From Actinomycetes bacterium (GTDB lineage Bacteria; Actinomycetota; Actinomycetes; Propionibacteriales; Propionibacteriaceae): 50,691 nt of DNA. A program made the translations under genes and the position numbers. Under the pieces are notes generated by a model. That model ran no database searches and was not told the origin of the DNA. It saw nothing but the letters and a program-made list of their open reading frames with translations. Of the stretch, positions 4,600-50,691 are shown piece after piece (the stretch's first letter is position 1; every line of letters starts with the position of its first letter). The stretch is from NCBI GenBank assembly GCA_021803025.1, contig JAJZQV010000012.1, positions 1-50,691 on the forward strand, in the 5' to 3' direction.

Positions 4600-4709
4600 G
4601 CCACCATCCTTGCCGACACGCCTCCAAGGCGCGGTTAACGAGCCGAGAAATCCACGTCGGATCACTCGACATGCTCCCGGGAGGGGACTCCATGCCATAG
4701 CGTCGGCTC

Positions 4710-25022: not shown

Positions 25023-25097
25023 GCCCTTGTAGCTCAGCGGTAGAGCACCCGCCTTGTAAGCGGAAGGTCGTGGGTTCGATTCCCACCGGGGGCTCCA
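25023..25097 (+). tRNA. tRNA-Thr (anticodon UGU), CCA encoded
   Basis: The 75-base gene folds as a tRNA. The acceptor stem GCCCTTG pairs with CGGGGGC (two G-U pairs). The D stem is GCTC/GAGC, the anticodon loop CTTGTAA carries TGT, and the T arm is GTGGG-TTCGATT-CCCAC. Discriminator T and CCA follow. The anticodon stem has one C-A mismatch at its outer pair. The anticodon reads ACA threonine codons and others by wobble. Confidence 0.93.
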
Positions 25098-33625: not shown

Positions 33626-33714
33626 CTCCAGTCCGACTGAGCACCCTGCTCCTCGCTGAGCACCTCTCACGCGCGGTGCTCGGTCACGTCCGTGGTACTC
33701 AGTCGTGTCTGGAG
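33626..33714. repeat. Nested imperfect inverted repeats in an intergenic gap
   Basis: Outer arms at 33626-33645 and 33694-33714 share CTCCAG, CGACTGAG and ACC blocks in inverted order. An inner hairpin, GAGCACC with GGTGCTC, lies at 33658-33664 and 33675-33681. It sits between the stop of the DUF664 gene and the start of the cap-protein gene, so a terminator is the simplest reading. The 183-base gap holds nothing else I can support. Confidence 0.5.
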
Positions 33715-33743
33715 CGAGCGGACAGGCGATGTTCACGCTCCGC

Positions 33744-34253
33744 TCATCCACGTACCGTCCGGGTCGACTGGTCGGCGGCGAGGATCTGTTCGCGAAGGAT
33801 GTCGGCGTGCCCCGCGTGCTGGGCGAGCTCGGCGATGCAGTGGACGACGACCCAGCGCAGCGAGATCGGTCCCCGGCGGTTGCCCAGCACGAGGTCATCG
33901 AGACACATGTCGGCGATCCGCCGACGGGACGCCTCGCACACCGCGTCGTAGCGCTCCAGGACCGAGGCGATGGTGTCGTCGGGGCCGAGCGTGAACGACT
34001 CGTCGACGCTCGAGCCGACCTCGAACGTGCTGCGGTCACGGAGTGTGATGGCCTCGTCGAACCAGGCGAGCTCGACGAACGTCGCGTGCTTGACCAGTCC
34101 GAGCAGCGTCGTGAGAGACGGTACCAGCGAGCGTCTCGCCTGCTCGTCCGTGAGGCCGTCGAGGGTGCTGCGGAGCTCGGCGCGGTAGTCGTCGAGGAAG
34201 CTGTCCAGCATCCGTCGCTCGTCGGCCTGCCACGTTGCCGCGGAGTCGCTCAC
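33744..34253 (-). CDS. DinB family protein, DUF664 type
   Basis: 169 residues. The DUF664/DinB pattern is clear: LDDYRAELRSTLDGLTDEQA, LLGLVKHATFVELAWFDE with one metal His, and ISLRWVVVHCIAELAQHAGH, whose HxxxH helix supplies the other two. This clade includes mycothiol-dependent enzymes in actinobacteria; the substrate is unknown. Its start lies only five bases from the 3' end of kbl, so it may be co-transcribed with the threonine genes upstream. Confidence 0.9.
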   Translation of the reverse strand: MSDSAATWQADERRMLDSFLDDYRAELRSTLDGLTDEQARRSLVPSLTTLLGLVKHATFVELAWFDEAITLRDRSTFEVGSSVDESFTLGPDDTIASVLERYDAVCEASRRRIADMCLDDLVLGNRRGPISLRWVVVHCIAELAQHAGHADILREQILAADQSTRTVRG

Positions 34254-34257
34254 CCGG

Positions 34258-35433
<1,176 letters not shown>

Positions 35434-35492
35434 GTCCAGCCTCCTCCTGGCAGACGTTACCGACACCCCCGCGGGCGTCGACGATGCCGGGC

Positions 35493-36518
35493 TCACGCCC
35501 AGCGCATGACCACCTTGCCGCCATGGCCCGACGCGGCGGTGGCGAACGCGGCCTCGTGGTCGGCGGCGTCGAACCGGTCGGTGATGACGCCGGAGATGTC
35601 GAGCCCCGACTGGATGAGCACGCTCATGGCGTACCAGGTCTCGAACATCTCCCGGCCGTAGATACCCTTGAGCGTGATCATGTGGAAGACGAGCGTCGAC
35701 AGGTCGAGCGTGGTCTCCCCGGACGGGATGCCCAGCATCGCGATGCGGCCCCCGTGCGTCATGTTCGCGAGCATGTCGCGCAGCGCCGCGGGCGCACCGG
35801 ACATCTCCAGGCCCACGTCGAAGCCCTCGGTCATGCCGAGGTCGTGCTGCGCCTCCGCCACGCTCTCGCGGGAGACGTTGACGGTACGGGTGGCGCCGAG
35901 GCGGCTCGCGAGCGCCAGCCGCTCGTCCGAGAGGTCGGTGACGACGACGAACCGCGCGCCGGCGTGCTGCGCGACCATGGCGGCCATGATCCCGATCGGG
36001 CCGGCCCCGCTCACGAGCACGTCCTCGCCGAGGCACGGGAACTGCAGCGCGGTGTGCACGGCGTTGCCGAAGGGGTCGAAGATCGCCGCGACGTCGACGT
36101 CGACCTCGTGCCGGTGGACCCACACGTTGCCGGCAGGGATGACGACGTAGTCGGCGAACGCCCCGTCGAGCTGGACGCCGATGCCCTGGGTCCGGACGCA
36201 CAGGTGGCGCCTGCCCGCACGGCAGTTGCGGCACTGGCCGCACACGAGGTGTCCCTCGCCCGACACGAGCTGGCCGATCTCGAGCCCTTCCACGGCCGCA
36301 CCGAGTGCGGCGATCTCGCCCGCGAACTCGTGGCCGATGATGCGCGGGGTACGGATCGTGCGCTGCGCCCACTCGTCCCAGTTCGCGATGTGCAGGTCCG
36401 TGCCGCAGATGCCGGTCGAGAGCACCCGTACGAGCACGTCGTTCGGCCCGACCGCCGGGACGGGCACCTGGCTCAGGGACAGGCCCTTATCCGGCCCGTT
36501 CTTCACGAGGGCTCTCAT
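35493..36518 (-). CDS. tdh: L-threonine 3-dehydrogenase
   Basis: Tdh oxidises threonine to 2-amino-3-ketobutyrate with NAD+, feeding Kbl encoded 59 bases downstream. With the ATG at 36518 the protein has 341 residues, the length of the E. coli enzyme. Zinc medium-chain dehydrogenase motifs are GICGTDLHI and GHEFAGE (catalytic zinc), a four-cysteine structural zinc loop around [16 protein letters not shown], and [10 protein letters not shown] for NAD. TACCCT lies five bases before this ATG, supporting it over the start at 36542. Confidence 0.95.
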
Positions 36519-36602
36519 GGTCGAGGGTATGAGCGAGGACAATGCAGCTCCATCAGTCGGGACGCGGAGAACAGAGCCGGTTCCTGGGGCCTTGCGGGGC
36601 CA

Positions 36603-38027
36603 CTAGAAGGCCGGTATCGGGGGCGCGTACGCCATGGCGGCCATCATCACCAGGCCCGCCAGAGCCAGCAGCCAGGCGTACACGCGTTGAGGGACGAGTC
36701 TGAGAGCCAGGACGACGAGGAGCGGGGCCAGCGACATCGAGTAGCGCGAGACGATCCCTACGTCCATGCCGAACGTCACAGCGTTGGTCAGGCGCAGGCC
36801 CGGCGGGTAGGCCCATAGGACGAGGACCGCCGCCGTGGCCACACCGAGAAGGTCGTTACGCTCAGGAGTCTCAGGCGTCGTCTCCGAGGTGGGTCCCCGC
36901 ATGATAGCGGTGGTGATTAGCGCCCCCAGAACGAGGATCGTGATGACCGCAGGAAGGACCTGCTGGACATCCGCGGCGAAAGAGAACCAGACGCTGGGGG
37001 TCGCTGGCTTGGTGCCCGCCGGCTCGGGGAACCACGGCGAGTGGAACGACAGGGCCTCCAGCGCCATCCCTCGGGCCACCTGGCCGATCGACTTCACGGG
37101 AGCGAAGGCGTACAAGTCCGCGTTTCCGACAGTGGCGGAGCCGGAGATCCACCGGCCCCACAGGAACCACGGAACGATCACAGCGCCGGAAGCAGCCCCC
37201 AACTGCCACCACGTTGGCTGCCACGCGATCGCCCTTGGACGACGGAGGACACGACACCCCCAGACCCACAGCCCGTACGCCACGATAGCGCCGGCGGGAA
37301 GCGCAGAGGTGACGGCGGTGATCCCAGACAGGAGTGTCGCGAACAAGAAGAACCAGTAGCCCCGCCTGGACCGCAGCCACAGGAATCCCCCGGCAGCCGT
37401 GAGGGAGCCGAGAACGAGACTGGCGGAGGACGGGTTGAAGTATGCGCCCATCCGGAAGAAGATCGCCGCCGCCGAAGGTACGGTAACCAGCGCCGCGAGA
37501 TGCGCGCCCTTGAGGTGAGCAGCGTACCCGAGGAGCCACAGACTCAGGAGACCCGCCAACAGCACCAGCGCCGAGTACGTACGCAGGCCGGTGATGTCCA
37601 CCCCCGAGCCAGAGGGCACCCCCGCGATCAGGGCGGCCAGGGCGAAGAACGTCGGGTAGTGGATGTAGGCACTCGAGTACGCCCCCTTCAGCTGGGTGCC
37701 TGCGCAACCCGGCGGAGGCGGGGACACCAGACCGACACCACAGTTGGCCTCGTATACGACCCTAGGTGAGTAGACCGACCCGCGGGTGGGCAATTGACCG
37801 TCCCAGAGGTGAGCGACGTAGTCGGTGTGGACGTGCTCGTCGACCACGAACAGGGGCATCCCCGCCTGGGAGAGATGTCGGACAGCACCGAAGAACAGGA
37901 CGAGCACCACCAGGGCGATCAGAGGCCATCCGATCGCACCCGCGAGCGAGGCCACCCGTGCCCAGCCTGTCCGGACGTGGCCGGACGCCGTTGTGTGCGG
38001 CCTGTCGTCGGCCGAAGTGGCGCTCAC
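36603..38027 (-). CDS. Polytopic membrane protein, probable glycosyltransferase of the GT-C type
   Basis: 474 residues from a GTG at 38027, with TAGCGT seven bases upstream. About 10-11 membrane helices are visible. A first extracytoplasmic loop contains FVVDEHVHTDYVAHLWDGQL, an acidic motif after helix 1 that in GT-C enzymes lies in the active site, and a CGVGLV...GCAG cysteine pair. This suggests a polyprenyl-phosphate-sugar-dependent glycosyltransferase or a polymer-modifying protein of the adjacent glycan region. No specific family is recognised. It is divergent from the aminotransferase scar at 38152. Confidence 0.7.
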   Translation of the reverse strand: MSATSADDRPHTTASGHVRTGWARVASLAGAIGWPLIALVVLVLFFGAVRHLSQAGMPLFVVDEHVHTDYVAHLWDGQLPTRGSVYSPRVVYEANCGVGLVSPPPPGCAGTQLKGAYSSAYIHYPTFFALAALIAGVPSGSGVDITGLRTYSALVLLAGLLSLWLLGYAAHLKGAHLAALVTVPSAAAIFFRMGAYFNPSSASLVLGSLTAAGGFLWLRSRRGYWFFLFATLLSGITAVTSALPAGAIVAYGLWVWGCRVLRRPRAIAWQPTWWQLGAASGAVIVPWFLWGRWISGSATVGNADLYAFAPVKSIGQVARGMALEALSFHSPWFPEPAGTKPATPSVWFSFAADVQQVLPAVITILVLGALITTAIMRGPTSETTPETPERNDLLGVATAAVLVLWAYPPGLRLTNAVTFGMDVGIVSRYSMSLAPLLVVLALRLVPQRVYAWLLALAGLVMMAAMAYAPPIPAF

Positions 38028-38112
38028 GCCGAGCACGCTACTCCCCTGATCGGATCAAGAGGCGGCCACAAGCCGCTCACCAAGTCGTGGCTGGCCCGCG
38101 GACCACGGCCGA

Positions 38113-38118
38113 TATAGT
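38113..38118 (+). promoter_or_regulatory. -10 element ahead of the aminotransferase scar
   Basis: TATAGT lies 33 bases before the GTG at 38152, which has GAAAGG as ribosome binding site. It may now drive the downstream membrane-protein gene. Confidence 0.4.
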
Positions 38119-38151
38119 GCGGGTCGTTGACCCTTGACCCTGAAAGGCGCC

Positions 38152-38325
38152 GTGACCGACATCACCTCTCTCGGGCAGCCCACCGTCGGCCCCGAAGAGC
38201 TCGACGCGGTCCTTGCGGTATTTGAGACAAACTGGCTGTCAGGAGCCGGACCGGCCTGGACAATGCCCGGGGAAGCGTCCGAGACCGGGACGAACTATCC
38301 CGCAGTCCTCAGGAACACACCGTGA
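38152..38325 (+). pseudogene. N-terminal remnant of a DegT/DnrJ sugar aminotransferase
   Basis: From the GTG the frame reads VTDITSLGQPTVGPEELDAV and continues LAVFETNWLSGAGPA. This is the usual first 35 residues of DegT/DnrJ/EryC1 aminotransferases (a proline-glycine turn, a helix, then WLSGGP-like). The frame then loses the family pattern and stops at 38325. The rest of the enzyme, about 330 residues, is gone. The start signals remain, and the stop overlaps the start of the next gene. It is not a copy of the intact aminotransferase at 40997, which has a different N-terminus. Confidence 0.7.
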
Positions 38326-40364
38326 TGTCAGGCCCGTCAGCATCACGAAGCAGCCGACTCATCGGAGCCTGGCCACGGGTCGACGAGGTCGTCAATGGAG
38401 TGCGCGAGGACGGGCTTCCGACGTGGCGCTCAGTGCTGTGGTTCCCCGCCCTCATGTTCGTCGGCATGCTAGTCCTGGTCGGGCTGGGCATCAGCGGAAG
38501 CTCAGTTGGCAACTGGTGGCACTACTTCGAGCAAGGCGCCGATCCCAGTGTCTACGCCGGTCAGCCACGCATGATCCGCACTGACGAGTGGGTTGCCCAG
38601 GCCTCGCAGGTCATCTCGCAGTACCGCAACGGTTTTCCGGGGATCAGCCCGATGTTTCCCGGCGGATACGACGTGACCCTCCATGGTGACCTACCCACCC
38701 GTGACTGGTCGGTGGCCTTCAGACCGCACCTGTTCCCCATGCTCGTCCTGCCACTGGCGCAGGGATACGCCTGGCGATGGTGGCTCCCGGCGTGGTTGCT
38801 GCTGTCTGGGGCCTTCCTGCTCACCCGGACCATGCTTCCGCGCATCGGGTGGGCGGCGCCCACCCTCGCCATCTCGGTGGTCTTCTCCCCGATCGTCCAA
38901 TGGTGGTGGCTGGCAATCACCTTCCTTCCCCCTGCCTGGGCATTCGTGGGCATGGCAGCCGTGTGGTGGTCGGTTCACACGACCCGGTGGCGAGAGCGGA
39001 CCTTCATGGCCGCGTTGACGGGCTATCTGGCCGTCAGCCAGGCGATGAGCATCTACGTGCCCTTCATCATCCCTTGTGTCGTCATGTTCGCGGCCTTCAC
39101 GGTCGGGACAGCCTGGTTGGGGGTCCGGCGCTTCGGGCTCAGGACAACCGTCGTGCGGGCCATGCCGCTGGTGGTCGCGGCAGCGATGGCCGGGGTTGTG
39201 CTGGTCCTCTGGTACGTGACCCGGCGAGCCACAATCTCCGCGATGCTCGGCACCGTGTATCCGGGAGCCCGCCGCGTGCTGACCGGATCCGGCGGCGCCC
39301 GAGAACTGTTCGCCCTGTTCACTGCGCCCTTCAGCACACCTGAGGGGCCGAATCTCTCGCTGGGACCATTCGGCACCAACCAAAGCGAAGCCTCAACCCC
39401 CTACATGATCGCCGCGTTCCTGGGCGTGGCTCTCCTCGCTCTGCTGTGGTTCGACCTGCGACGCAAGCGCCGGCTCGACTCCATGGTTGTGGCGACTCTC
39501 GGTGCGATGATCCTCATCGTCGGTTATCTCATCGTCCCAGGGTGGAGCGCGGTAGCTCACCTCATCGGACTCGACATGATGACGGCCTCGCGCGGCCGGA
39601 TGTTCTGGCTCGTGGCCGGCGTGGTCGCTTTCGTCGTGGTTGGGCGTCGCCTTGTACCCGCCGATGACTCGGAGCCGGTCAGCCTGGGTCGGTGGACTCA
39701 GGCGTTGACCCTCCTGGTGGCCTCCGAGGTCATGATCCTGGTTGTCTACGTCATGGTCCGGCGCTCCGACGAGACCCTCGTCATTAACTGGGAGTGGATC
39801 ATCCTGGTGCCGGTTTTCATCCTGGCGATCTGGTTCGTGGTTCAGCGGCACCTCGCGCTGGCTGCGCTCACGATCGCCATCGTCAGCTTCGCCACCACGA
39901 GCGGAGTCAACCCTCTCTATCGGGGGGTGTACGACGCTGCCACCGAGACAGAGGCCGGCGCCGCTGTCGTGGCCATCAACAGGTCAAGACCAGGCAACTG
40001 GCTAGCCGTCGGTGCCGGGCCCGAGGACTTGGCCGTCCTGCTGCACGCGGGGGTGACCTCTTTCAACGGTCTCGCCTCGTTCCCACCGATGGCCATGTGG
40101 ACCTCCATCGATCCTTCGAGGCGGTACGAGGCCGTATGGAACCGCATGGGGGTTATTAGCTGGAAGCCGGGAACCGGCGAACCGACGTTCGAAAACCCCG
40201 TGGCCGATCAGATCGTCGGGACCTTCGACCCATGCTCGTCGTTCGCCAAGACGCAGGTGACGTACGTCCTCGTGCGGGATGAACAGCCGACCGCGTGCCT
40301 GACGAAACTCGCCGTCACCCATGACGGGCCACTCGTGACGTACATCTACGAGGTCGTCAAGTAG
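38325..40364 (+). CDS. Large polytopic membrane protein of a surface-glycan locus
   Basis: 679 residues and roughly 12-13 membrane helices (for example SVLWFPALMFVGMLVLVGLG, APTLAISVVFSPIVQWWWLAITF, ALLALLWFDLRR). A long first outer loop contains RMIRTDEWVAQASQVISQ, with an acidic pair after a helix as in GT-C glycosyltransferases. The C-terminal extracytoplasmic part is soluble and has a Cys pair (FDPCSSF, TACLTK). Similar proteins lie in O-antigen-like and wall-polysaccharide loci without assigned function. A GTG at 38322 is an alternative start. Codon use looks less GC-biased than in the flanking core genes. Confidence 0.7.
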   Translation: MSGPSASRSSRLIGAWPRVDEVVNGVREDGLPTWRSVLWFPALMFVGMLVLVGLGISGSSVGNWWHYFEQGADPSVYAGQPRMIRTDEWVAQASQVISQYRNGFPGISPMFPGGYDVTLHGDLPTRDWSVAFRPHLFPMLVLPLAQGYAWRWWLPAWLLLSGAFLLTRTMLPRIGWAAPTLAISVVFSPIVQWWWLAITFLPPAWAFVGMAAVWWSVHTTRWRERTFMAALTGYLAVSQAMSIYVPFIIPCVVMFAAFTVGTAWLGVRRFGLRTTVVRAMPLVVAAAMAGVVLVLWYVTRRATISAMLGTVYPGARRVLTGSGGARELFALFTAPFSTPEGPNLSLGPFGTNQSEASTPYMIAAFLGVALLALLWFDLRRKRRLDSMVVATLGAMILIVGYLIVPGWSAVAHLIGLDMMTASRGRMFWLVAGVVAFVVVGRRLVPADDSEPVSLGRWTQALTLLVASEVMILVVYVMVRRSDETLVINWEWIILVPVFILAIWFVVQRHLALAALTIAIVSFATTSGVNPLYRGVYDAATETEAGAAVVAINRSRPGNWLAVGAGPEDLAVLLHAGVTSFNGLASFPPMAMWTSIDPSRRYEAVWNRMGVISWKPGTGEPTFENPVADQIVGTFDPCSSFAKTQVTYVLVRDEQPTACLTKLAVTHDGPLVTYIYEVVK

Positions 40365-40470
40365 CCGCACGCTCAGCCGTCGTATGGCGAGGGCTCACCG
40401 AGGACCGTCGCGCGATGTGTTGGTCGATCCCGATAGAGGCAGTCGCGGCATGGCGCGTTGAGAACGTGCA

Positions 40471-40630
40471 GCTCGCCGGGCTCGACGAAGACGCCAAGCT
40501 CCAGGCCCAGCAGGTCGTCGCCCGCGTCTCGTCGCGCCGTCCTCCGGAGCGCGGATCCATGGTGCGCATGGGCGTCGACGCCGAGCACATCCACGTGTTC
40601 TCCGACGTCACGCAGGAGCGCCTGTCCTGA
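40471..40630 (+). repeat. 160-bp direct repeat, copy 1: orphan 3' end of msiK
   Basis: This copy matches 46548-46707 at 159 of 160 bases; the single difference is a synonymous CGT/CGC. It encodes the last 52 residues of the MsiK ATPase, in frame, up to the stop codon. The rest of the ATPase is absent, and upstream bases 40365-40470 are unrelated. A strong hairpin follows at 40649-40680, as expected behind a real gene end, so this may be the older location of the msiK terminus. Confidence 0.95.
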
Positions 40631-40648
40631 GTCTCTGACACGCACGCT

Positions 40649-40680
40649 GTCCGGGCCTCGCCGTCTGGCGGGCCCCGGAC
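40649..40680 (+). terminator. Terminator behind the orphan msiK 3' end
   Basis: Two 14-base arms (GTCCGGGCCTCGCC and GGCGGGCCCCGGAC) pair with two mismatches around a four-base loop. No equivalent follows the intact msiK, where the pabB frame begins at once. Confidence 0.7.
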
Positions 40681-40834
40681 GTCTGTTCGTACGGCCCCCC
40701 AGTCAGACGCCTGACACGTGCTCGCTGAGCACGGACGGAAGACTCGGGCGGCGCCGGCCGCGCATCCCCCATGGGCGTGGCATACCTTGACGTGTTGACC
40801 CGAGGGCCCCATCAACCCCCCGAAAGGAGCCCGC

Positions 40835-40840
40835 TATACT
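40835..40840 (+). promoter_or_regulatory. Strong -10 element for the amino-sugar genes
   Basis: GCTATACT is close to the consensus -10 with an extended element, though no good -35 was found at normal spacing. The region 40681-40996 otherwise contains only short open frames that I do not call as genes. Confidence 0.5.
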
Positions 40841-40996
40841 CTTGCCGGCCACTCCGAGGAAGGCGACGTGATCGACTTCACCCCCTCGGCAGACCCATCC
40901 TGCAGGACGGCATTCCCGCCTGATCCCCGCGCCCGGCGGATCGTTCATGATCACCGGCGACGTCATGCGCGTCGCCTTACTCGAGGAGACACCCCG

Positions 40997-42073
40997 ATGA
41001 TCCCAGCAGCCAAGCCCGTCATCGGCGACGAGGAGAGAGCCGCCGTCGATCGGGTCCTGCGAAGCGGGATGATCGCCCAGGGCCCCGAGGTCGCCGCGTT
41101 CGAGCGGGAGTTCGCCGACGAGCTGGTGGGCGGCCGCACCTGCGTCGCCGTGAGCTCCGGCACCGCCGGCCTGCACCTGGGCCTACTCGCGGCCGGCATC
41201 GGCCCCGGCGACGAGGTCATCGTCCCGTCCTTCACGTTTGCCGCGACGGCCAACTCCGTGGCACTGACCGGGGCCACCCCCATCTTCGCCGACATCGACC
41301 CGGTCAGCTACTGCCTCGACCCGGCGTCCGTCGAGGCTGCCATCACGGAGCGGACCGCTGCAGTGATGCCCGTGCATCTCTATGGCCACCCCGCCGACAT
41401 GACTGCCCTCGTGGCCATCACCGACAAGCACGGGATCCAGCTCTTCGAAGACGCCGCCCAGGCGCACGGGGCATCCTGGGACGGTCGCCCGGTCGGCTCG
41501 TTCGGCACCTTCGGGATGTTCAGTCTCTACCCCACCAAGAACATGACTTCGGGCGAGGGCGGCATGGTGTCGTGCGCCAACCCCGACATCGTCCGTAAGG
41601 TCCAGCTCCTACGCAACCAGGGCATGGAGAAGCGGTACGAGAACGAGGTCGTGGGCTTCAACCAGCGCATGACCGACGTGCACGCCGCCATAGGACGGGT
41701 CCAGCTCACGAAGCTCCCCGCCTGGACCGCCCAGCGCCAGGCCAACGCCACGTTCCTATCCGAGAACCTCGTCGGCGTCGGTGTCCCGACAGTCGCCGCG
41801 AACGCCACGCACGTCTGGCACCAGTACACGATCAGGGTCCCCGAGGATCGAGACGGCTTCGCGGCGGCGCTCGCGATGCGTGGCGTCGGCTCGGGGGTCT
41901 ACTACCCGATCCCGAACCACGAGCTGCCCTCATTCGGGCTCACGCTCGACCTCCCCTGTACACGCGAAGCGTGTGCCCAGGTACTCTCTCTCCCCGTCCA
42001 CCCGGCCCTCAGCCAAGAGGACCTCGAAACCATCGTCGACGCCGTGAACGCCTTGGCGAAGGCAGGTGCGTGA
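40997..42073 (+). CDS. DegT/DnrJ/EryC1 sugar-nucleotide aminotransferase
   Basis: 358 residues from ATG 40997, behind GAGGAGA. It is a PLP enzyme: AVSSGTAGLHLGLLA binds the cofactor phosphate, EVIVPSFTFAATANS and PVHLYGHPADM follow, EDAAQAHGA holds the cofactor ring Asp, and the Schiff-base lysine is in SLYPTKNMTSGEGG. The family transfers an amino group to a keto-sugar nucleotide. The next gene, overlapping by one base, is a Gfo/Idh dehydrogenase that could make the 3-keto sugar. The pair matches the WlbA/WlbC or GnnA/GnnB logic for 3-amino sugars. In the WlbC/WbpE or GnnB sense the substrate would be UDP-3-keto-GlcNAc(A); this is inference. Confidence 0.92.
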   Translation: MIPAAKPVIGDEERAAVDRVLRSGMIAQGPEVAAFEREFADELVGGRTCVAVSSGTAGLHLGLLAAGIGPGDEVIVPSFTFAATANSVALTGATPIFADIDPVSYCLDPASVEAAITERTAAVMPVHLYGHPADMTALVAITDKHGIQLFEDAAQAHGASWDGRPVGSFGTFGMFSLYPTKNMTSGEGGMVSCANPDIVRKVQLLRNQGMEKRYENEVVGFNQRMTDVHAAIGRVQLTKLPAWTAQRQANATFLSENLVGVGVPTVAANATHVWHQYTIRVPEDRDGFAAALAMRGVGSGVYYPIPNHELPSFGLTLDLPCTREACAQVLSLPVHPALSQEDLETIVDAVNALAKAGA

Positions 42074-43059
42074 TGCCGAACCTCAAGGCTGGACTCATTG
42101 GGCTGGGCGTGATGGGACGGCACCACGCCCGCGTTCTGCGCTCCTTGCCGGGGGTCGTTCTGGTCGCCGTCGCTGATCCCGGCGGCGACCAATACGACGC
42201 TGCCGGAGGCCTGGATATCGGCAAGGACGTCCAGCACCTCATCGACAGCGGGGTTGACTATGCGGTCGTTGCCGTCCCCACGGTCTTCCACGAGGAGGTC
42301 AGCATCGCCCTGGCCGAGGCGGGCATCCACGCACTGGTGGAGAAGCCGCTGGCCAACGACGTCGCCGCTGCGACCCGGATGGCAGACGCCTTCCGTTCGC
42401 GTGGTCTCGTCGGTGCCACGGGACACATCGAGCGATACAACCCGGCTCTGCAGTCGATGCGTACGCGTCTCGAGGCAGGCGAGCTCGGCGAGGTGTTCCA
42501 GGTCGTCACACGCCGACAGGGTCCTTTCCCGATCCGGATCGCAGACGTGGGCGTTGTGAAGGACCTCGCCACCCACGACATCGACCTGACCGCGTGGGTG
42601 ACTGGCTCGTCGTACGTGTTAGTGTCCGCCCAGACGGCGTTCCGTTCCGGCCGCGAGCACGAGGACCTCGTTGCAGCAGCCGGTCGGCTCGCGGACAATG
42701 CGGTCACGAACCACCTCGTGAACTGGCTGTCGCCCATGAAGGAGCGGGTGACGGTTGTGACCGGCGAGCGCGGTTCGTTCGTGGCGGACACGCTCACTGG
42801 TGACCTGACGTTCTACGCCAACGGCACCGTCGCGACCACCTGGGACCTCATCGCGGGCTTCCGCGGCGTGACCGAGGGCGACGTCGTTAGGTTCGGAATC
42901 GCCAAGCCGGAGCCGCTGCGAACGGAGCACGAGGCCTTCCGCGATGCCGTGCTGGGCAAGCCAGCGGACATCGTCACGATGGAACAGGGGCTGGCGACGG
43001 TCCGGGTTGCCGAAGCCGTGCTGACCGCTTCCAAGACTGGAGAGACCATTCGCCTCTGA
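42073..43059 (+). CDS. Gfo/Idh/MocA sugar-nucleotide dehydrogenase
   Basis: 328 residues. The NAD(P)-binding start KAGLIGLGVMGRHHARVL, the AVAVPTVFHEEVSIALAEAG motif, the EKPL signature (VEKPLANDV) and the catalytic-region histidine in LATHDIDLTAWV are all visible. It overlaps the aminotransferase stop (TGATG), so the two are translated together. WlbA and GnnA of known 3-amino-sugar routes belong to this family and oxidise C3 of UDP-GlcNAc derivatives; the same role is proposed here. Converging GtrA and glycosyltransferase genes follow on the other strand. Confidence 0.92.
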   Translation: MPNLKAGLIGLGVMGRHHARVLRSLPGVVLVAVADPGGDQYDAAGGLDIGKDVQHLIDSGVDYAVVAVPTVFHEEVSIALAEAGIHALVEKPLANDVAAATRMADAFRSRGLVGATGHIERYNPALQSMRTRLEAGELGEVFQVVTRRQGPFPIRIADVGVVKDLATHDIDLTAWVTGSSYVLVSAQTAFRSGREHEDLVAAAGRLADNAVTNHLVNWLSPMKERVTVVTGERGSFVADTLTGDLTFYANGTVATTWDLIAGFRGVTEGDVVRFGIAKPEPLRTEHEAFRDAVLGKPADIVTMEQGLATVRVAEAVLTASKTGETIRL

Positions 43060-43070
43060 GTAGGCCGGGG

Positions 43071-43528
43071 TCAGTCGGGCGGCCCGATCGTCTCGCCCGG
43101 GGCCCCCAGGTGTGCGGAGGCTGACGACGGGTCAGCGTTGCCGGGACTCGAGCTCTCGGACATGCCGAACACCCACCGGCTCATGAGCCAGTAGTTGATG
43201 AGGGCAATGACGGCCATCGAGATCAGTTTGGCGACGTGCGCCTGCAGGCTGACGGCAACGAGCCCGGCCACGATGGAAGTTGACAGAACGAAGTTCAGGG
43301 CGACCAGGAGAACGTATCGGATGAGCATCTTCCTGCTATGCACGACCCGAAAGACCAGCGCCCTGTTGCCCGAGTAGTTGACGGCGAACGCCGACAGGAA
43401 GCCGATTGCCGACGCGGCGGGGGCTGCCACACCCAGCGCGTACAGCAGCGAGAACATGCCCGCGTCCACCGATGCGCTCGCGACGCCTACCCCGAGGAAA
43501 GTCACCAGCCTCCGGATCCGGTTCCCTC

Positions 43529-43532
<4 letters not shown>
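43071..43532 (-). CDS. GtrA-like membrane protein
   Basis: 153 residues from a GTG at 43532 that overlaps the glycosyltransferase stop (GTGA). Four membrane helices are visible: VTFLGVGVASASVDAGMFSL, AIGFLSAFAVNYSGNRALVF, YVLLVALNFVLSTSIVAGLV and ISMAVIALINYWLMSRWVF. This is the GtrA fold, thought to flip or handle polyprenyl-phosphate sugars made by the partner GT2 enzyme. The C-terminal 30 residues are a soluble Ser/Pro-rich tail. Confidence 0.92.
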
Positions 43533-44458
<926 letters not shown>

Positions 44459-44581
44459 CCGTGTCCCTTCGTCGATCAGATCTTAAGGGCGACGTACCAG
44501 TGACATGGCCAACCATGTGCGAGCCTGGGCCCGGTATTACGTATCGTGGTGGCACCATCCACGAGCATCCCAGGAGCCCGC

Positions 44582-45286
44582 ATGACGCCTACCCCGCAGT
44601 TCGTCTCGAAGGGCGGCAACCAGATTCACACCAGCGCAGTGATGGGTGCCTCTGTACGGCTCGGGACAGGAAACATCATCGGCCCAGGGTCAGTCCTCGC
44701 CGGCAGACTCGTCGTAGGTGACGGTAACTTCTTCGGTGCCAACGTGGTGGTCGGATGCCCACCCGAGGTTCGGGGGTTCCCACACACCGCCGACTGGATA
44801 GACACATCAGAAGGCGAAGGCGTCGTCATCGGCAACCGCTGCGTCTTCCGAGAAGGGGCGCAGGTCCATACCGGCTGGCACGACCAGACCGTCGTGGGGG
44901 ACGAAGTCTTCCTCATGAACCAGGTGTACGTCGCCCACGACTGCCACCTCGCTGACGGCGTGACGATGGCTTCCAACGTCGCCGTCGGCGGCCACGTGCA
45001 TGTTGGGCTGCACGCCAACCTCGGTCTCGGCACCGTGGTCCACCAGCGGCGCTCCATCGGCGCCCTGGCGATGGTCGGCATGGGATCGGTAGTCACCCGC
45101 GACGTGCCACCTTTCGCCAAGGCGTTCGGCAACCCATGCCGGGTCAAGGGCACGAACTCCGTGGGCATGGAGCGTATGGGGATCTCAGCGGAGTCGATCC
45201 GAGAGGTCCAGGAGGCCCTTGAACGCGGGGAGCTACCCGGCGACATGGGGTACGGCGACCTGGCGCCCTACGCCACGACCAGGTGA
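44582..45286 (+). CDS. LpxA-like UDP-sugar acyltransferase (left-handed beta helix)
   Basis: 234 residues from ATG 44582, behind CAGGAG. Hexapeptide repeats fill residues 15-165 (for example VRLGTGNIIGPGSVLAGRLV). The LpxA-specific features are present: REGAQVHTG, LMNQVYVAHDC with the putative catalytic His119, GGHVHVG, TVVHQ and the end VPPFAKAFGNPCRVKGTNSV followed by a helical GMERMGISAESIREV tail. LpxA acylates UDP-GlcNAc in lipid A synthesis, which actinobacteria lack. In this locus it more likely acylates a 3-amino sugar made by the two enzymes at 40997-43059. An acetyl donor is equally possible. Confidence 0.82.
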   Translation: MTPTPQFVSKGGNQIHTSAVMGASVRLGTGNIIGPGSVLAGRLVVGDGNFFGANVVVGCPPEVRGFPHTADWIDTSEGEGVVIGNRCVFREGAQVHTGWHDQTVVGDEVFLMNQVYVAHDCHLADGVTMASNVAVGGHVHVGLHANLGLGTVVHQRRSIGALAMVGMGSVVTRDVPPFAKAFGNPCRVKGTNSVGMERMGISAESIREVQEALERGELPGDMGYGDLAPYATTR

Positions 45287-45615
45287 CTTGTTCCGTTTTG
45301 CCCGTCGGGTGGCCGTGCGAGCCTCCCGGCCTGAGAACAGGTCGCTCCTGATCGGGCGGTCCCTGTCTTGGCCCGAGGGACGTCCTCCGGGACCGGGGCC
45401 AGCCCAGGTTCTCGCGCCTGGCCCAGGACAGTTCCCCAGGTCAGTCGGACAGGGTGGCCCACGTGAGCCGGCGACCCCGGGGGCGCGGCGCGATCTCACC
45501 CCGGTGTTCCATATCGGCGTCCGGGCATGAGAAGATCCACGGCAGAGGGCGTAACCCTCGTTCGTTCCACTACGGATCGTCGGGCACGTACCTGCCCGTG
45601 GAAAGGATTCACACT
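45287..45615. other. Gene-free region between the acyltransferase and msiK
   Basis: 329 bases without a supportable gene. It is GC-rich, with short imperfect inverted repeats around 45390-45440 (CCAGG and CCTGG blocks) that may end the upstream transcript. The msiK promoter must lie in its right part, but no -10 element is convincing; the ribosome binding site is GAAAGGA at about 45601. Confidence 0.5.
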
Positions 45616-46707
45616 GTGGCTACTGTCACGTTCGCAGACGCCTCGCGCGTCTACCCCGGTGCCGACCACCCGGCCGTCGACAAGCTGAGCCTTGAGATCG
45701 GCGACGGCGAGTTCATGGTCCTCGTCGGCCCCTCCGGCTGCGGCAAGTCGACCTCGCTGCGCATGCTCGCGGGGCTCGAGGAGGTCAACACCGGCAACAT
45801 CTACATCGGTGACCGCGACGTCACCGACCTGCCGCCGAAGGACCGGGACATCGCCATGGTGTTCCAGAACTACGCGCTGTACCCACACATGACCGTCGCC
45901 GACAACATGGGCTTCGCGCTCAAGATGCAGGGCGTCGGCAAGCAGGAGCGCGCCGAGCGCGTCCTCGAAGCCGCCAAGCTGCTCGGCCTGGAGGACTTCC
46001 TGTCCCGCAAGCCGAAGGCCCTCTCCGGTGGGCAGCGGCAGCGCGTCGCCATGGGCCGCGCGATCGTTCGTCAGCCCCAGGTCTTCCTCATGGACGAGCC
46101 GCTGTCGAACCTCGACGCCAAGCTTCGCGTCTCGACCCGTACCCAGATCGCGGCCCTCCAGACCCGCCTCGGCGTCACCACCGTGTACGTGACGCACGAC
46201 CAGGTCGAGGCCATGACGATGGGTGACCGCGTCGCGGTCATGAAGGACGGCGTCCTGCAGCAGGTCGACACCCCGCTGACCCTGTACGACCAGCCGGCCA
46301 ACCTCTTCGTGGCCGGATTCATCGGCTCCCCGGCCATGAACCTCATGTCCGGCCCGATCGTGGACGGCGGCGTCTCCATCGGTGACTACGTCGTCCCGAT
46401 CAAGCGCGAGGTCCTGGCCAAGGCCCCCGGCGAGAAGACGCTGACCCTCGGCATCCGTCCTGAGTCCTTCATCATGGCGGACGACGGCATCGGGCTGGAC
46501 GTCGCGGTCGTCGAGGAGCTCGGGGCGGACGCTTATGTGTACGGCACGCTCGCCGGGCTCGACGAAGACGCCAAGCTCCAGGCCCAGCAGGTCGTCGCCC
46601 GCGTCTCGTCGCGCCGCCCTCCGGAGCGCGGATCCATGGTGCGCATGGGCGTCGACGCCGAGCACATCCACGTGTTCTCCGACGTCACGCAGGAGCGCCT
46701 GTCCTGA
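45616..46707 (+). CDS. msiK: MsiK/MalK-type ABC transporter ATPase for oligosaccharide import
   Basis: 363 residues from a GTG at 45616 with GAAAGGA upstream. One complete ABC domain: Walker A GPSGCGKST, Q-loop VFQNYALYPHMTV, signature LSGGQRQR, Walker B VFLMDEPLSNLDAKLR and switch His in VTHDQ. A regulatory OB-type (TOBE) domain follows from about residue 245 (GSPAMNLMSGP, LGIRPESF). In actinobacteria this ATPase is shared among several sugar importers encoded elsewhere, so the lack of permeases here is normal. Its last 160 bases are duplicated at 40471-40630. It ends at the junction where pabB begins. Confidence 0.94.
   Translation: MATVTFADASRVYPGADHPAVDKLSLEIGDGEFMVLVGPSGCGKSTSLRMLAGLEEVNTGNIYIGDRDVTDLPPKDRDIAMVFQNYALYPHMTVADNMGFALKMQGVGKQERAERVLEAAKLLGLEDFLSRKPKALSGGQRQRVAMGRAIVRQPQVFLMDEPLSNLDAKLRVSTRTQIAALQTRLGVTTVYVTHDQVEAMTMGDRVAVMKDGVLQQVDTPLTLYDQPANLFVAGFIGSPAMNLMSGPIVDGGVSIGDYVVPIKREVLAKAPGEKTLTLGIRPESFIMADDGIGLDVAVVEELGADAYVYGTLAGLDEDAKLQAQQVVARVSSRRPPERGSMVRMGVDAEHIHVFSDVTQERLS
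46548..46707 (+). repeat. 160-bp direct repeat, copy 2: 3' end of intact msiK
   Basis: This is identical to 40471-40630 except for one base. The match ends exactly with the msiK TGA stop at 46707. The two copies are in the same orientation and enclose 5.9 kb of sequence (40631-46547). Confidence 0.95.
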
Positions 46708-48485
46708 CTGGGGCCGACCTCTCGTCACACCAGCTGACAGGCTCGCGGGCCGCGTTCGTCCTCCTGGACGATGCGCGGCCCGCGGGTCGTTGTGGAGCTC
46801 GCCTGTTCCGCGACCCCGTCGAGGCGACGACGGCGTGGACCGTCGACGACGTACCGGCCGTCCTGGAGACGCTCCGCCAGGCCGGCCGCCGTGGACTGCA
46901 CGCCGCGGGGTTCCTCGCGTACGAAGCGGGCTGGGCCATGGAGCCCGCGCTCCCCGCCGTCATGGTTGACCGTCGAACGCCCCTGGCTTGGTTCGGGCTG
47001 TTCGAGTCGGCGGTCCCCGTGAGCGACCCGTGCAGCCTCCTGCCCGACCCTGCTGGTGCCCACGTCGGACCGGTCACCCCGCACATCGGCTACGACACGT
47101 ACGCACGCCGGTTCGCGGTCGTGCACGACCACATCAGGTCTGGCGACATCTACCAGGCGAACCTCACGTTCCAGGCGTCGGCCCGCTACGCCGGCAGCCC
47201 GCTCGCGCTGTACGCGGCGTTGAGGTCCACGTCGCAGGCTGGCCACGGGGCGGTCGTGTGGACTGGCTCGCAGTGGGTCCTCAGCCTCTCCCCCGAGCTC
47301 TTCGTCTCCCTGGAGGGCCGAACCGTCACGGCGAGGCCGATGAAGGGCACCGCCGCACGGTCCCCCGACCCCGCGGTGGACGCCGCCCTCGCCGAAGACC
47401 TCCGGCTCGACCCCAAGCAATGCGCCGAGAACGTCATGATCGTGGACCTGCTCCGGAACGACCTCGGCCGGGTCGCCGAGCTGGGGTCGGTCGCCGTCCC
47501 ACGGCTGTTCGAGGTCACCACCTACCCGACCGTCCACCAGCTCACGAGCACCGTCACGGCGACGCTGCGCGACGGGCTAGACACCCTCGACCTCGTGTCG
47601 GCGAGCTTCCCGTGCGGGTCAGTCACGGGCGCTCCCAAGATCTCCGCCATGGAGATCCTGGCCGGGCTGGAGGAGGGCCCACGGGGTGTCTACTGCGGCT
47701 CGGTCGGACACCTCGACCCATCGGGTGACGCGTCGTTCAACGTGGCGATCCGCACCCTCGTGCTCGACGAGGAGCGTTCGACCGCGACCCTCGGGCTCGG
47801 TTCGGGCCTCGTGGCCGACAGCACGCCCGAGGCGGAGTGGAAGGAGTGCCTGGACAAGGCGGCGTTCCTCGACCTGGGGAGGAAGGTCGAGCTCGTGGAG
47901 ACGATGCGCCACGACTCCGGCGGCGTCCGACGGCTCGAGCTCCACCTGGCGCGGCTCACATCCAGCGCGGACGCGCTGGGCATGGCGTGTGACACCTCAG
48001 CCGTCCGGGACCTCGTCCTGGAGAGCACCTCGACCGTACGGCTGCCCTCCCGGGTCCGGGTCGTGCTGGGCCGCGTCGGGGCCACCTGCGAGGTCGGCCC
48101 GCTCCCGGCATCGCCTCCGGAACCCTGGTCGGTGAAGCTCGCATCCCTGCCCGTCGAGCCGACCGACTTCCGGCTGCGTCACAAGACCACGGACCGGGCC
48201 TTCCACGACCGCGCCAGGGTCGACAGCGGCGCCGACGAGGTCGTCTTCGTCCGTGAGGACGGTCTCCTCACCGAGGGGAGCTTCACGGCGCTCTTCGTCC
48301 CGCGCGGCGACGTGCTGCTCACGCCCCGGGTCGAGTCCGGCGCACTCGACTCCGTCCTCCGGCGCGAGCTGCTGGCGTCAGGTCGCGCGGTCGCCGCCGA
48401 TCTCCGGACGTACGACCTCGCGGACGGCTTCCTGCTCGGCAACAGCCTGCGAGGCCTGGTCCGCGCCCGGCTGAGCACGACCTAG
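46704..48485 (+). CDS. pabB: Fused aminodeoxychorismate synthase component I and lyase (PabB-PabC), start codon altered
   Basis: PabB aminates chorismate and PabC releases p-aminobenzoate for folate. The frame is family-like from SRAAFVLLDDARPAGR (about 46743) through AAGFLAYEAGWAME. The chorismate domain has MKGTAARSPDP, PKQCAENVMIVDLLRNDLG, GSVTGAPKISAM and GVYCGSVGH. The PabC-like class IV aminotransferase domain has HKTTDRAFHDRAR and EVVFVREDGLLTEGS. No ATG, GTG or TTG occurs in frame before 46938, which lies inside the conserved part. A CTG at 46704 overlapping the msiK stop is the best start and may be a changed ATG. With it the protein has 593 residues. Expression may be weak or coupled to msiK. 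Confidence 0.85.
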   Translation: MTGADLSSHQLTGSRAAFVLLDDARPAGRCGARLFRDPVEATTAWTVDDVPAVLETLRQAGRRGLHAAGFLAYEAGWAMEPALPAVMVDRRTPLAWFGLFESAVPVSDPCSLLPDPAGAHVGPVTPHIGYDTYARRFAVVHDHIRSGDIYQANLTFQASARYAGSPLALYAALRSTSQAGHGAVVWTGSQWVLSLSPELFVSLEGRTVTARPMKGTAARSPDPAVDAALAEDLRLDPKQCAENVMIVDLLRNDLGRVAELGSVAVPRLFEVTTYPTVHQLTSTVTATLRDGLDTLDLVSASFPCGSVTGAPKISAMEILAGLEEGPRGVYCGSVGHLDPSGDASFNVAIRTLVLDEERSTATLGLGSGLVADSTPEAEWKECLDKAAFLDLGRKVELVETMRHDSGGVRRLELHLARLTSSADALGMACDTSAVRDLVLESTSTVRLPSRVRVVLGRVGATCEVGPLPASPPEPWSVKLASLPVEPTDFRLRHKTTDRAFHDRARVDSGADEVVFVREDGLLTEGSFTALFVPRGDVLLTPRVESGALDSVLRRELLASGRAVAADLRTYDLADGFLLGNSLRGLVRARLSTT

Positions 48486-48543
48486 GCTCACGCTGTTGTC
48501 TGGGTACGGTGAGGGGCAGGCAACAGTCGCAGCTGGAGGAACA

Positions 48544-49911
48544 GTGACACAGACCGTGAACCTCGTGATCCTGGGAGCCTCGGGGGATCTCACCCGTCGC
48601 CTCCTGCTGCCGGGTCTCGGCACCCTGCTCAAGGCGGAGCACAACATCTCGGTGCACGTGGTCGGAGCCGCCGCGGAGGACTGGGACCAGGGCACGTGGC
48701 GCGACATGGTCAAAGCCGCGCTGACCGACGGCGGCTGCTCCTCCACGGCGATGCAGGAGATCCTCGACGACACCTGCTACACGCAGGTCGACGCGTCGAG
48801 CAAGGACGACCTGGCCGGCCTCATCAAGGACCTCACGGGACGGATCGTCCTGTACTTCGCGCTCCCGCCCGCGGTGAGCATGGCCGCCTGCAAGGCCCTG
48901 TCGGAGATCACTCTCCCGCGGGAGCTGTACCTGGCGATCGAGAAGCCGTTCGGCACGGACGCGAAGAGCGCCCACGACTTCAACGAGCTCCTGGCCCACC
49001 TGCCGCTGCCGGAGTCGCACATCTTCCGCGTCGACCACTACCTCGGCAAGGCGACGGTGCTGAACCTCGTCGGGCTCCGGTTCACGAACCGCCTGTTCGA
49101 GCCGGTGTGGAACGCGACGAACATCGAGAGCATCCAGATCGTGTACGACGAGACGCTCGCCCTCGAAGGCCGAGCCGGCTACTACGACCGCGCCGGGGCG
49201 CTCAAGGACATGATCCAGAGCCACCTTCTGCTCGTCATGGCGCTGCTCTGCATGGAGGAGCTCGCCACGTTCGACGCGTTCGAGCTGCGCGACCTCATGG
49301 CGCACCTGCTGCGCTCGACCCACCTATGGCAGGACGATCCCGTCGAGGCATCACGGCGCGCCCGGTACACCGCCGGCAAGGTGGGAGACGAGGTCGTCCC
49401 CGACTACGTGAACGAGAAGGGCGTCGACCCGACGCGTAACACGGAGACCCTGGCCGAGGTCGTCGTCGAGATCCGCAACGCCCGCTGGTCGGGGGTGCCC
49501 ATCACGCTGCGCAGCGGGAAGGCGCTCGGCGACGGCGTACGTCAGATCACGCTCGTGTTCCGGCCCATCGCCCACACCCCGGCCGGCTTCCACGACGAGG
49601 CCCCCCGCAACGTCGTCGTCATCGGGCTGTCGCCCGAGTTCATCCGGGTGCAGCTGTCCACCAACGTCGAGGGGGACCGGTTCAGCCTCGAGCCGACCGT
49701 CCTCCACGCAGAGCTCGGGGAGAGCCAGATCCGGCCGTACGGCGAGATCCTGTCGCACATCCTCAAGGGTGACCCTCTGCTCAGCGTGAGGGGTGACGTC
49801 GCCGAGGAATGCTGGCGCATCGTCACCCCGGTCCTCGACGCGTGGGCGGAGGGCAAGGTGCCCCTCGACTCGTACGCGGCGGGCTCAGCAGGACCAGGCG
49901 CCTGGAGCTGA
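48544..49911 (+). CDS. zwf: Glucose-6-phosphate dehydrogenase
   Basis: Zwf oxidises glucose-6-phosphate to 6-phosphogluconolactone with NADP+, opening the pentose phosphate pathway. 455 residues from a GTG behind GGAGGAAC. The dinucleotide motif GASGDLTRRLLLPGL, the EKPFGTD motif, the active-site RVDHYLGKATVLN and GYYDRAGALKDMIQSH are present. The length is a little shorter than the common 480-510 residues. It lies between pabB and the DUF4032 gene and seems to be transcribed on its own. Confidence 0.95.
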   Translation: MTQTVNLVILGASGDLTRRLLLPGLGTLLKAEHNISVHVVGAAAEDWDQGTWRDMVKAALTDGGCSSTAMQEILDDTCYTQVDASSKDDLAGLIKDLTGRIVLYFALPPAVSMAACKALSEITLPRELYLAIEKPFGTDAKSAHDFNELLAHLPLPESHIFRVDHYLGKATVLNLVGLRFTNRLFEPVWNATNIESIQIVYDETLALEGRAGYYDRAGALKDMIQSHLLLVMALLCMEELATFDAFELRDLMAHLLRSTHLWQDDPVEASRRARYTAGKVGDEVVPDYVNEKGVDPTRNTETLAEVVVEIRNARWSGVPITLRSGKALGDGVRQITLVFRPIAHTPAGFHDEAPRNVVVIGLSPEFIRVQLSTNVEGDRFSLEPTVLHAELGESQIRPYGEILSHILKGDPLLSVRGDVAEECWRIVTPVLDAWAEGKVPLDSYAAGSAGPGAWS

Positions 49912-49975
49912 GCGCGAACCCGCTCGCCTCGCCGCCCCGGCACGTCGTTTCGCGTGCTGGTGCACACTGTCACAC

Positions 49976-50691
49976 GTGCCCCGCTTCGTCTCCGCCAAGC
50001 CCGACTCACGGCTGATCCCGCTGCCGTGGGGCACGCCGCTCGCGGAGTGGCCGACCGAGCACCTCGTCGCCCTCCCCCGCGGCATCTCCCGCCACGTCGT
50101 GCGGTTCATCCGTGTCGGCTCCAGCGTGTACGCGGCGAAGGAGGTCATCGAGCACCTCGCCCTCCACGAGTACCGGCTCCTGCACGACCTCATGCGGATG
50201 GGAACCCCGTCGGTGGAGCCCATCGGCGTCATCACGAAGCGCATCGCCGCCGACGGCACCGAGCTCGACCCGATCCTCATCACGCGCCACCTCCAGTTCT
50301 CCCTCCCGTACCGCTCCCTCTTCGCGTCGGGCGTCCGCCAGGACACGGTGAGCCGGCTCATCGACGCCATGGTGGTGCTGCTGGCACGGCTCCACCTCAT
50401 CGGGTTCCTCTGGGGCGACGTGTCGCTGTCGAACACGCTGTTCCGCCGGGACGCCGGGTCGTTCGCCGCCTATCTCGTGGACGCCGAGACCGGGGAGCTG
50501 CACGACACGCTCACCGCCGGGCAGCGCGAGCACGACCTCATCATCGCGCGGACGAACCTGTTCGGCGACTTCTGCGACCTGCAGGCGGGGGGGATGCTCG
50601 AGGAGAGCCTCGACCCCCTCCATCTCGTCGACATGGTGGAGACCCGGTACCGGGAGCTGTGGTCGGAGCTGACCGGCGTCGAGGAGTTCTC
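49976..50691 (+). CDS. DUF4032 domain protein (kinase-like), cut by the window end
   Basis: The first 238 residues are visible from a GTG at 49976, and the frame is open at the window edge. The N-terminal region is kinase-like: VYAAKEVIEHLALHEYRLLH resembles the ATP-site lysine and helix C, and LARLHLIGFLWGDVSLSNTLF resembles the catalytic loop of lipopolysaccharide-kinase-like proteins, followed by YLVDAETGE. The DUF4032 C-terminal domain would follow outside the window. The target is unknown. CACACT seven bases before the GTG may be a weak leaderless -10. Confidence 0.8.
   Translation, partial: MPRFVSAKPDSRLIPLPWGTPLAEWPTEHLVALPRGISRHVVRFIRVGSSVYAAKEVIEHLALHEYRLLHDLMRMGTPSVEPIGVITKRIAADGTELDPILITRHLQFSLPYRSLFASGVRQDTVSRLIDAMVVLLARLHLIGFLWGDVSLSNTLFRRDAGSFAAYLVDAETGELHDTLTAGQREHDLIIARTNLFGDFCDLQAGGMLEESLDPLHLVDMVETRYRELWSELTGVEEF

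What the first reader, a model, noticed from the sequence alone, without database searches (positions are those of the whole stretch)
40471..46707. 160-bp direct repeat of the msiK 3' end bounds a glycan cassette
The last 160 bases of msiK, ending exactly at its stop codon, occur again 6.08 kb upstream with one synonymous difference. The enclosed DNA holds an aminotransferase, a dehydrogenase, GtrA, GT2, an acyltransferase and msiK itself. This looks like a recent insertion or duplication using the msiK 3' end as target or homology, as islands do at tRNA 3' ends, but no integrase is inside. The repeat could also allow excision by homologous recombination, which would remove the full msiK.
Basis: partly seen in the sequence, partly recalled or inferred. 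Interest (0 to 1): 0.72.

Follow-up and report, generated by a model that had tools for sequence, protein, structure and literature searches.

The report
Leftover msiK tail beside glycan cassette
A 160-base stretch that repeats the end of a sugar-transport gene is probably the leftover of an older copy of that gene, left behind when surface-sugar genes were swapped at this spot, so it looks like an ordinary recombination scar and not a mobile element.

Summary
In detail: 40471-40630 and 46548-46707 match at 159 of 160 bases, 6,077 bp apart, and nowhere else in this draft genome. The reading as an island at a 3' end fails: the truncated copy lies upstream of the intact gene, and none of the genome's nine tyrosine-integrase matches is on this contig.

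Sister genomes suggest what happened. In five congeners msiK is followed by a GC-rich hairpin and zwf (5 of 5); tdh stands upstream, with variable genes between, in the 3 contigs that reach it. Here the left fragment keeps the msiK downstream hairpin (clear match to one sister, G003), while the right, complete msiK keeps the native leader with the Rfam msiK RNA but joins a foreign pabB-pabC fusion gene at its stop codon.

Best reading: the left copy is the residue, in place, of the old msiK; the complete msiK belongs to a block (glycan cassette, msiK, pabBC) now lying between that residue and zwf. The event is recent: 1 difference between copies against 11-12 to the nearest sister. The locus resembles known replacement-type surface-glycan islands. 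Excision is untested and an assembly chimera is not excluded.

The parts
35493..36542 (-). tdh, conserved left flank gene
   Evidence: NCBIfam NF003808 above cut-off; precedes msiK in the 3 sister contigs that reach it
36603..38036 (-). 477-aa ORF without Pfam or NCBIfam match
   Evidence: no blastn match in sister contigs L133-L140
38322..40364 (+). DUF7657/DUF7654 membrane protein gene
   Evidence: Pfam; no match at E 1e-3 in the six sister genomes
40471..40630 (+). left copy: last 160 bp of msiK; read as residue in place of an older msiK
   Evidence: has the base shared by five sisters at the differing site
40631..40680 (+). GC-rich hairpin after the left copy, aligned with the msiK downstream hairpin of sister G003
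   Evidence: blastn 90% over 210 bp for 40471-40678; score above 500 of 500 shuffles for G003; fold z only -1.43; no T-run terminator found
40997..42073 (+). DegT/DnrJ/EryC1/StrS aminotransferase
42073..43059 (+). Gfo/Idh/MocA oxidoreductase, nearest NCBIfam model UDP-GlcNAc 3-dehydrogenase (below cut-off)
43071..43892 (-). GtrA-domain protein (domain in the C-terminal half of the longest ORF)
43529..44458 (-). GT2 glycosyltransferase
44582..45286 (+). LpxA-like hexapeptide acyltransferase
   Evidence: no match at E 1e-50 in the six sisters
45555..45613 (+). msiK RNA (RF01747) in the leader of the intact msiK
   Evidence: 58.6 bits, gathering 33
45616..46707 (+). intact msiK
46548..46707 (+). 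right copy: 3' end of intact msiK
46704..48485 (+). pabB-pabC fusion gene; likeliest start CTG overlapping the msiK stop
48541..49911 (+). zwf, conserved right flank gene
   Evidence: NCBIfam NF009492 above cut-off; follows msiK in 5 of 5 sister loci

Best explanation
The left 160 bp is the residue, in place, of an older msiK, still attached to its own downstream hairpin. A block made of the glycan cassette, a complete msiK with its own leader, and pabBC came to lie between that residue and zwf; the 5' part of the old msiK was lost, perhaps with the arrival of the DUF7657 gene region. Likely route (inferred): DNA from the same or a very close lineage recombined homologously on the zwf side and illegitimately on the other. 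The tdh-msiK-zwf spot works as a replacement-type flexible island for surface glycans with msiK as a conserved flank. Shown: msiK downstream sequence on the left copy, native leader on the right copy, variable content in sisters, low divergence between copies. Inferred: order of events, donor, route.
For: msiK then zwf in 5 of 5 sister loci, hairpin between them by eye in the alignment. Left copy plus hairpin aligns with G003 at 90% over 210 bp, to 40678, while the G003 match at the right copy ends 18 bp past the stop. Intact msiK keeps the native leader, with the msiK RNA. Unaligned tdh-msiK interval: 235 bp in G001, about 2.3 kb in G002, about 3.7 kb in G003, about 9 kb here. The DUF7657 protein, the acyltransferase and pabBC have no close match in six sister genomes, and none of the foreign parts matches sister contigs L133-L140 by blastn. 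Copies differ at 1 of 160 sites; sisters differ from the copies at 11-12 (G003) and 20-24 (four others), and all five share the left copy's base. DUF2304, found in the interval of G002 and G003, is not found in this genome.
Against: The hairpin match rests on G003: in the other four sisters the blastn match at the left copy stops at 40630-40633, with shuffle p 0.018-0.40. The same shuffle test gave p 0/500 for a match of G001 inside the end of pabBC, so it is lenient. Homology beyond the hairpin is only a hint. The nearest sister differs by side: at tdh G001 (89.0%) over G002 (86.7%) and G003 (85.7%); at zwf G003 (86.7%) over G001 (82.9%), which points to a mosaic history or a chimeric contig. 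The 99% identity of the copies also fits an intragenomic duplication. The linker 40365-40470 matched nothing tested.
Confidence: 0.55

Rival explanations
1. Intragenomic tandem duplication of the msiK region (cassette, leader, msiK, hairpin), followed by replacement of the first copy's front by the DUF7657 region and of the second copy's hairpin by pabBC.
For: Explains without a donor why the copies are 99% identical and why leader and hairpin are native.
Against: Needs a duplication and two later replacements; no remnant of a second cassette copy: the only direct repeat in 38,000-50,691 of 25 nt or more is the 160-bp one.
Confidence: 0.2
2. A short segment (msiK 3' end plus hairpin) was copied alone to the upstream place, by template switching or similar, and now ends transcription of the DUF7657 gene; pabBC replaced the hairpin at the right in a separate event.
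For: The copied part is short with sharp edges and carries a hairpin.
Against: Needs two unrelated events at the two msiK ends; no function of the hairpin shown and no T run.
Confidence: 0.1
3. Assembly chimera of coexisting strains or species joined at the msiK 3' end.
For: Draft genome in 191 contigs; msiK is broken at contig ends in sisters G001 and G003; nearest sister differs between the left and right flank.
Against: Both copies lie inside a 50.7-kb contig with different flanks and differ by a base; two separate foreign junctions would have to be false; both flanks are of the same genus at 82-91%.
Confidence: 0.12
4. Integrase-driven island that uses the msiK 3' end as attachment site, able to excise.
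For: Direct repeat of a gene's 3' end bounding foreign genes; nine integrase-family genes exist elsewhere in the genome.
Against: Truncated copy is on the wrong side of the intact gene; no PF00589 match on the contig; an att core is usually far shorter than 160 bp (recalled).
Confidence: 0.03

Closest known systems
Replacement flexible genomic islands exchanged by homologous recombination (PMC4033161; abstract and two passages seen)
   Same: Same place holds different genes for exposed structures in relatives; no integrase; Gram-positive cases are included
   Different: Here the flank gene left a truncated second copy and a non-glycan gene (pabBC) entered on its other side; a search of that text for 'truncated' and 'duplicat' gave no passage; the boundary SNP peaks described there could not be tested
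Homology-facilitated illegitimate recombination (PMC3240628; abstract seen)
   Same: One end joined by homology, the other illegitimately, could set foreign DNA beside a conserved gene
   Different: Only inferred here; neither donor nor recipient sequence seen
Genomic islands at gene or tRNA 3' ends (recalled)
   Same: Repeat of a 3' end at the two sides of foreign genes
   Different: Fragment upstream of the intact gene, no tyrosine integrase on the contig, 160-bp repeat
msiK RNA motif, Rfam RF01747
   Same: Full match above gathering score in the leader of the intact msiK
   Different: No difference seen; no match was reported at the truncated copy

Membership tests
Replacement flexible genomic island | Same position holds different genes of similar surface-glycan role in relatives | tested here: met
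   tdh-msiK interval: GT2-like genes and DUF2304 in G002 and G003, glycan cassette here, nearly empty in G001; sister genes other than DUF2304 named by eye
Replacement flexible genomic island | Conserved flanking genes | tested here: met
   tdh in 3 of 3 contigs that reach it, zwf in 5 of 5; in G001 and G003 the two halves of msiK lie on different contigs
Replacement flexible genomic island | Peaks of substitutions at the boundaries between otherwise close strains | not testable with these tools
   No conspecific genome at hand; sisters differ by 9-18% in the flanks
Integrase-driven island at a gene 3' end | Truncated 3' copy downstream of the restored gene | tested here: not met
   Fragment 40471-40630 is upstream of msiK 45616-46707 on the same strand
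Integrase-driven island at a gene 3' end | Integrase gene within the element | tested here: not met
   PF00589: 9 matches in the genome, 0 on contig C11; serine recombinases not searched genome-wide
Homology-facilitated illegitimate recombination product | One homologous and one illegitimate junction between known donor and recipient | not testable with these tools
   No donor or recipient allele available
msiK RNA (RF01747) | Match above gathering score upstream of msiK | tested here: met
   45555-45613 +, 58.6 bits against 33

The most novel reading that the evidence does not exclude
The direct repeat is a working switch: recombination between the two msiK 3' ends reversibly loops out the 6,077-bp glycan cassette with msiK; the circle, which would carry msiK with its own leader and hairpin, can reinsert, coupling surface glycan and sugar uptake in part of the population.
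Probability: 0.02. Interest if true: 0.55.

Novelty: new member of a known kind. Interest (0 to 1): 0.2.

Why it matters
It shows how such repeats can be read: with sister genomes one can ask which copy is the old one, and here the broken copy, not the intact gene, appears to stand in the original place. It adds the tdh-msiK-zwf region of this actinobacterial genus to the known kind of surface-glycan replacement loci, with a conserved sugar-uptake gene as the flank at which swaps leave a scar. It does not point to a new mobile element.

Tried and rejected
Integrase island at the msiK 3' end: rejected on geometry. tRNA target: the only tRNA in the window is tRNA-Thr at 25023-25097. Plasmid origin: the 'near' search of 40200-47400 against plasmids found 495 records, none covering 80% of the query; the 20 rows shown all lie within msiK. 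Repeat elsewhere in the genome: none; linker 40365-41000 elsewhere: only the right copy. Inverted repeats within 80 bp: six short imperfect pairs, none at a junction (that tool did not list the two hairpins folded). Linker 40365-40470 as remnant of the lost msiK front or of sister intervals: no signal, p 0.45-0.80. Profile of the five sister msiK-zwf intergenic regions against the window: no significant hit at the left copy (hairpin E 1.5 on the opposite strand and 17 on the right strand; part beyond the hairpin E 2.5), with better scores at unrelated places. Sigma-70 promoters and T-run terminators: none found in 40200-48700. Fold of the left hairpin: z -1.43, 19 of 200 shuffles fold as well. 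Neighbourhoods of the 80 named msiK loci at E 1e-8: no zwf and no pabBC match, one weak aminotransferase match (27%, L043), tdh-type matches in 6 of 80, of which only L005 Acidipropionibacterium timonense is strong (65%). Limits: sister genomes are 69-97% complete; genome-wide absence was tested only for the DUF7657 protein, the acyltransferase and pabBC; the other cassette genes were compared only with fetched loci. Papers: PMC4033161 abstract and two passages, PMC3240628 abstract; the other listings were seen as listings only. An earlier count gave the differing site as 40538/46615; right is 40540/46617.

Full report
The observation. The repeat is as described: 160 nt at 40471-40630 and 46548-46707, 6,077 bp apart, one difference at repeat position 70. 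It is the only such pair in the draft genome, whose contig C11 is the window. Just outside, the two places are unrelated: 12 of 30 identical bases upstream, 7 of 30 downstream.

What the sisters show. Seven genomes of the genus are held, this one included. Of the six sisters, five have one full-length match at 86-93% (G005 also a 43-base match at 80%) and G006 has none; G006's best MsiK-like protein is 46% identical. I took the contigs of the five. In all five msiK is followed by zwf (in G002 only the first 64 bp of the match are on the contig), with 119-152 bp between stop and start (from the lengths) and a GC-rich hairpin there (by eye). tdh precedes msiK in the three contigs that reach it; in G001 and G003 the two halves of msiK lie on different contigs. 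The unaligned stretch between the tdh match and the msiK match is 235 bp in G001, about 2.3 kb in G002 and about 3.7 kb in G003, against about 9 kb in the window. In G002 and G003 it holds GT2-like genes (by eye) and DUF2304 (profile). A tdh also stands near msiK in Acidipropionibacterium timonense, with another ORF between. So genes change between relatives at this spot.

Which copy is old. The G003 contig aligns with the left copy at 90% over 210 bp, through the hairpin to 40678; its match at the right copy ends at 46725, 18 bp past the stop. Against 500 shuffles the stretch after the left copy scores best for G003 (0 of 500), with p 0.032, 0.018, 0.168 and 0.40 for G002, G004, G001 and G005; the stretch after the right copy gives p 0.26-0.70 for the five. 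The test is lenient: a G001 match inside the end of pabBC also reached 0 of 500. In the four sisters other than G003, blastn at the left copy stops at 40630-40633. Sequence beyond the hairpin, to about 40791, shares blocks with G004 (p 0.008); summed over five sisters p is 0.004 against 2,000 shuffles, but that score is only 60th of 1,684 sliding segments of the window and a profile gives E 2.5. I treat it as a hint. On the upstream side the situation is reversed: the intact msiK has the native leader with a full msiK RNA at 45555-45613; none was reported at the fragment. The surroundings of one old msiK are thus split: front on the right copy, back on the left. The simplest reading is that the left copy is the back end of the old gene in its place and that the complete gene lies in a block between it and zwf.

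The right-hand junction. The intact msiK joins a pabB-pabC fusion gene at its stop codon. At E 1e-90, 7 of 147 family genomes have one, this genome included and none of its sisters; the other six are 40-46% identical. In its open frame no ATG, GTG or TTG lies before 46938; the candidates are one ATC and six CTG codons, of which the CTG at 46704 overlaps the msiK TGA and precedes the conserved N-terminal part. The start may have been cut at the junction, and translation may depend on coupling to msiK (inference).

Age. The copies differ at 1 of 160 sites; G003 differs from them at 11-12, the other four sisters at 20-24, and all five share the left copy's base at the differing site. So the change arose in the intact gene and the duplication is younger than the split from G003, unless conversion has kept the copies alike.

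Mechanism. A block could have been joined by homology on the zwf side and illegitimately on the other; homology-facilitated illegitimate recombination is a described process (PMC3240628, abstract). A tandem duplication with later replacements is not excluded. Site-specific integration does not fit: wrong side, and 0 of 9 tyrosine-integrase matches on this contig. The kind of locus is known: replacement flexible genomic islands for exposed structures (PMC4033161, abstract and two passages). I judge this a new example of that kind with a clear scar.

The cassette. A DegT aminotransferase, an oxidoreductase whose nearest curated model is UDP-GlcNAc 3-dehydrogenase and an LpxA-like acyltransferase (all below curated cut-offs), with GT2 and GtrA, would suit making and transferring a 3-acylamino sugar; this is inference from family names. 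GC is 63.5-67.5% in the cassette genes, 64.9% in the DUF7657 gene and 71.8% in pabBC, against 67.4% in msiK and 68.1-70.8% in the tdh, zwf and outer parts.

Caveats. The contig could be chimeric: msiK is broken at contig ends in two sisters, and the nearest sister differs by side, G001 at tdh (89.0%, against 85.7% for G003) and G003 at zwf (86.7%, against 82.9% for G001). A mosaic history would give the same. No reads and no conspecific genomes could be examined.

Noticed in passing
46704-46940: pabB-pabC fusion gene has no ATG/GTG/TTG before its conserved N-terminal part; a CTG overlapping the msiK stop is the likeliest start.
   Followed up: partly
46737-46793: A very stable hairpin (46708-46800 folds at -55.6 kcal/mol, z -3.9, 1 of 200 shuffles as good) lies inside the 5' end of the pabBC frame, about 30 nt after the msiK stop.
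   Followed up: no
45555-45613: Rfam msiK RNA (RF01747) in the leader of the intact msiK, 58.6 bits.
   Followed up: no
40997-45286: LpxA-like acyltransferase with a UDP-GlcNAc 3-dehydrogenase-like enzyme and a DegT aminotransferase in an actinobacterium, resembling a 3-amino-sugar acylation set.
   Followed up: no
L140 (G003:C167) 4096-5175: Sister G003 carries a second complete MsiK-like gene, 67% identical.
   Followed up: no
window 33700-36540 and 48540-50691: The nearest sister genome differs between the two flanks (G001 at tdh, G003 at zwf), which hints at a mosaic history or a chimera.
   Followed up: no
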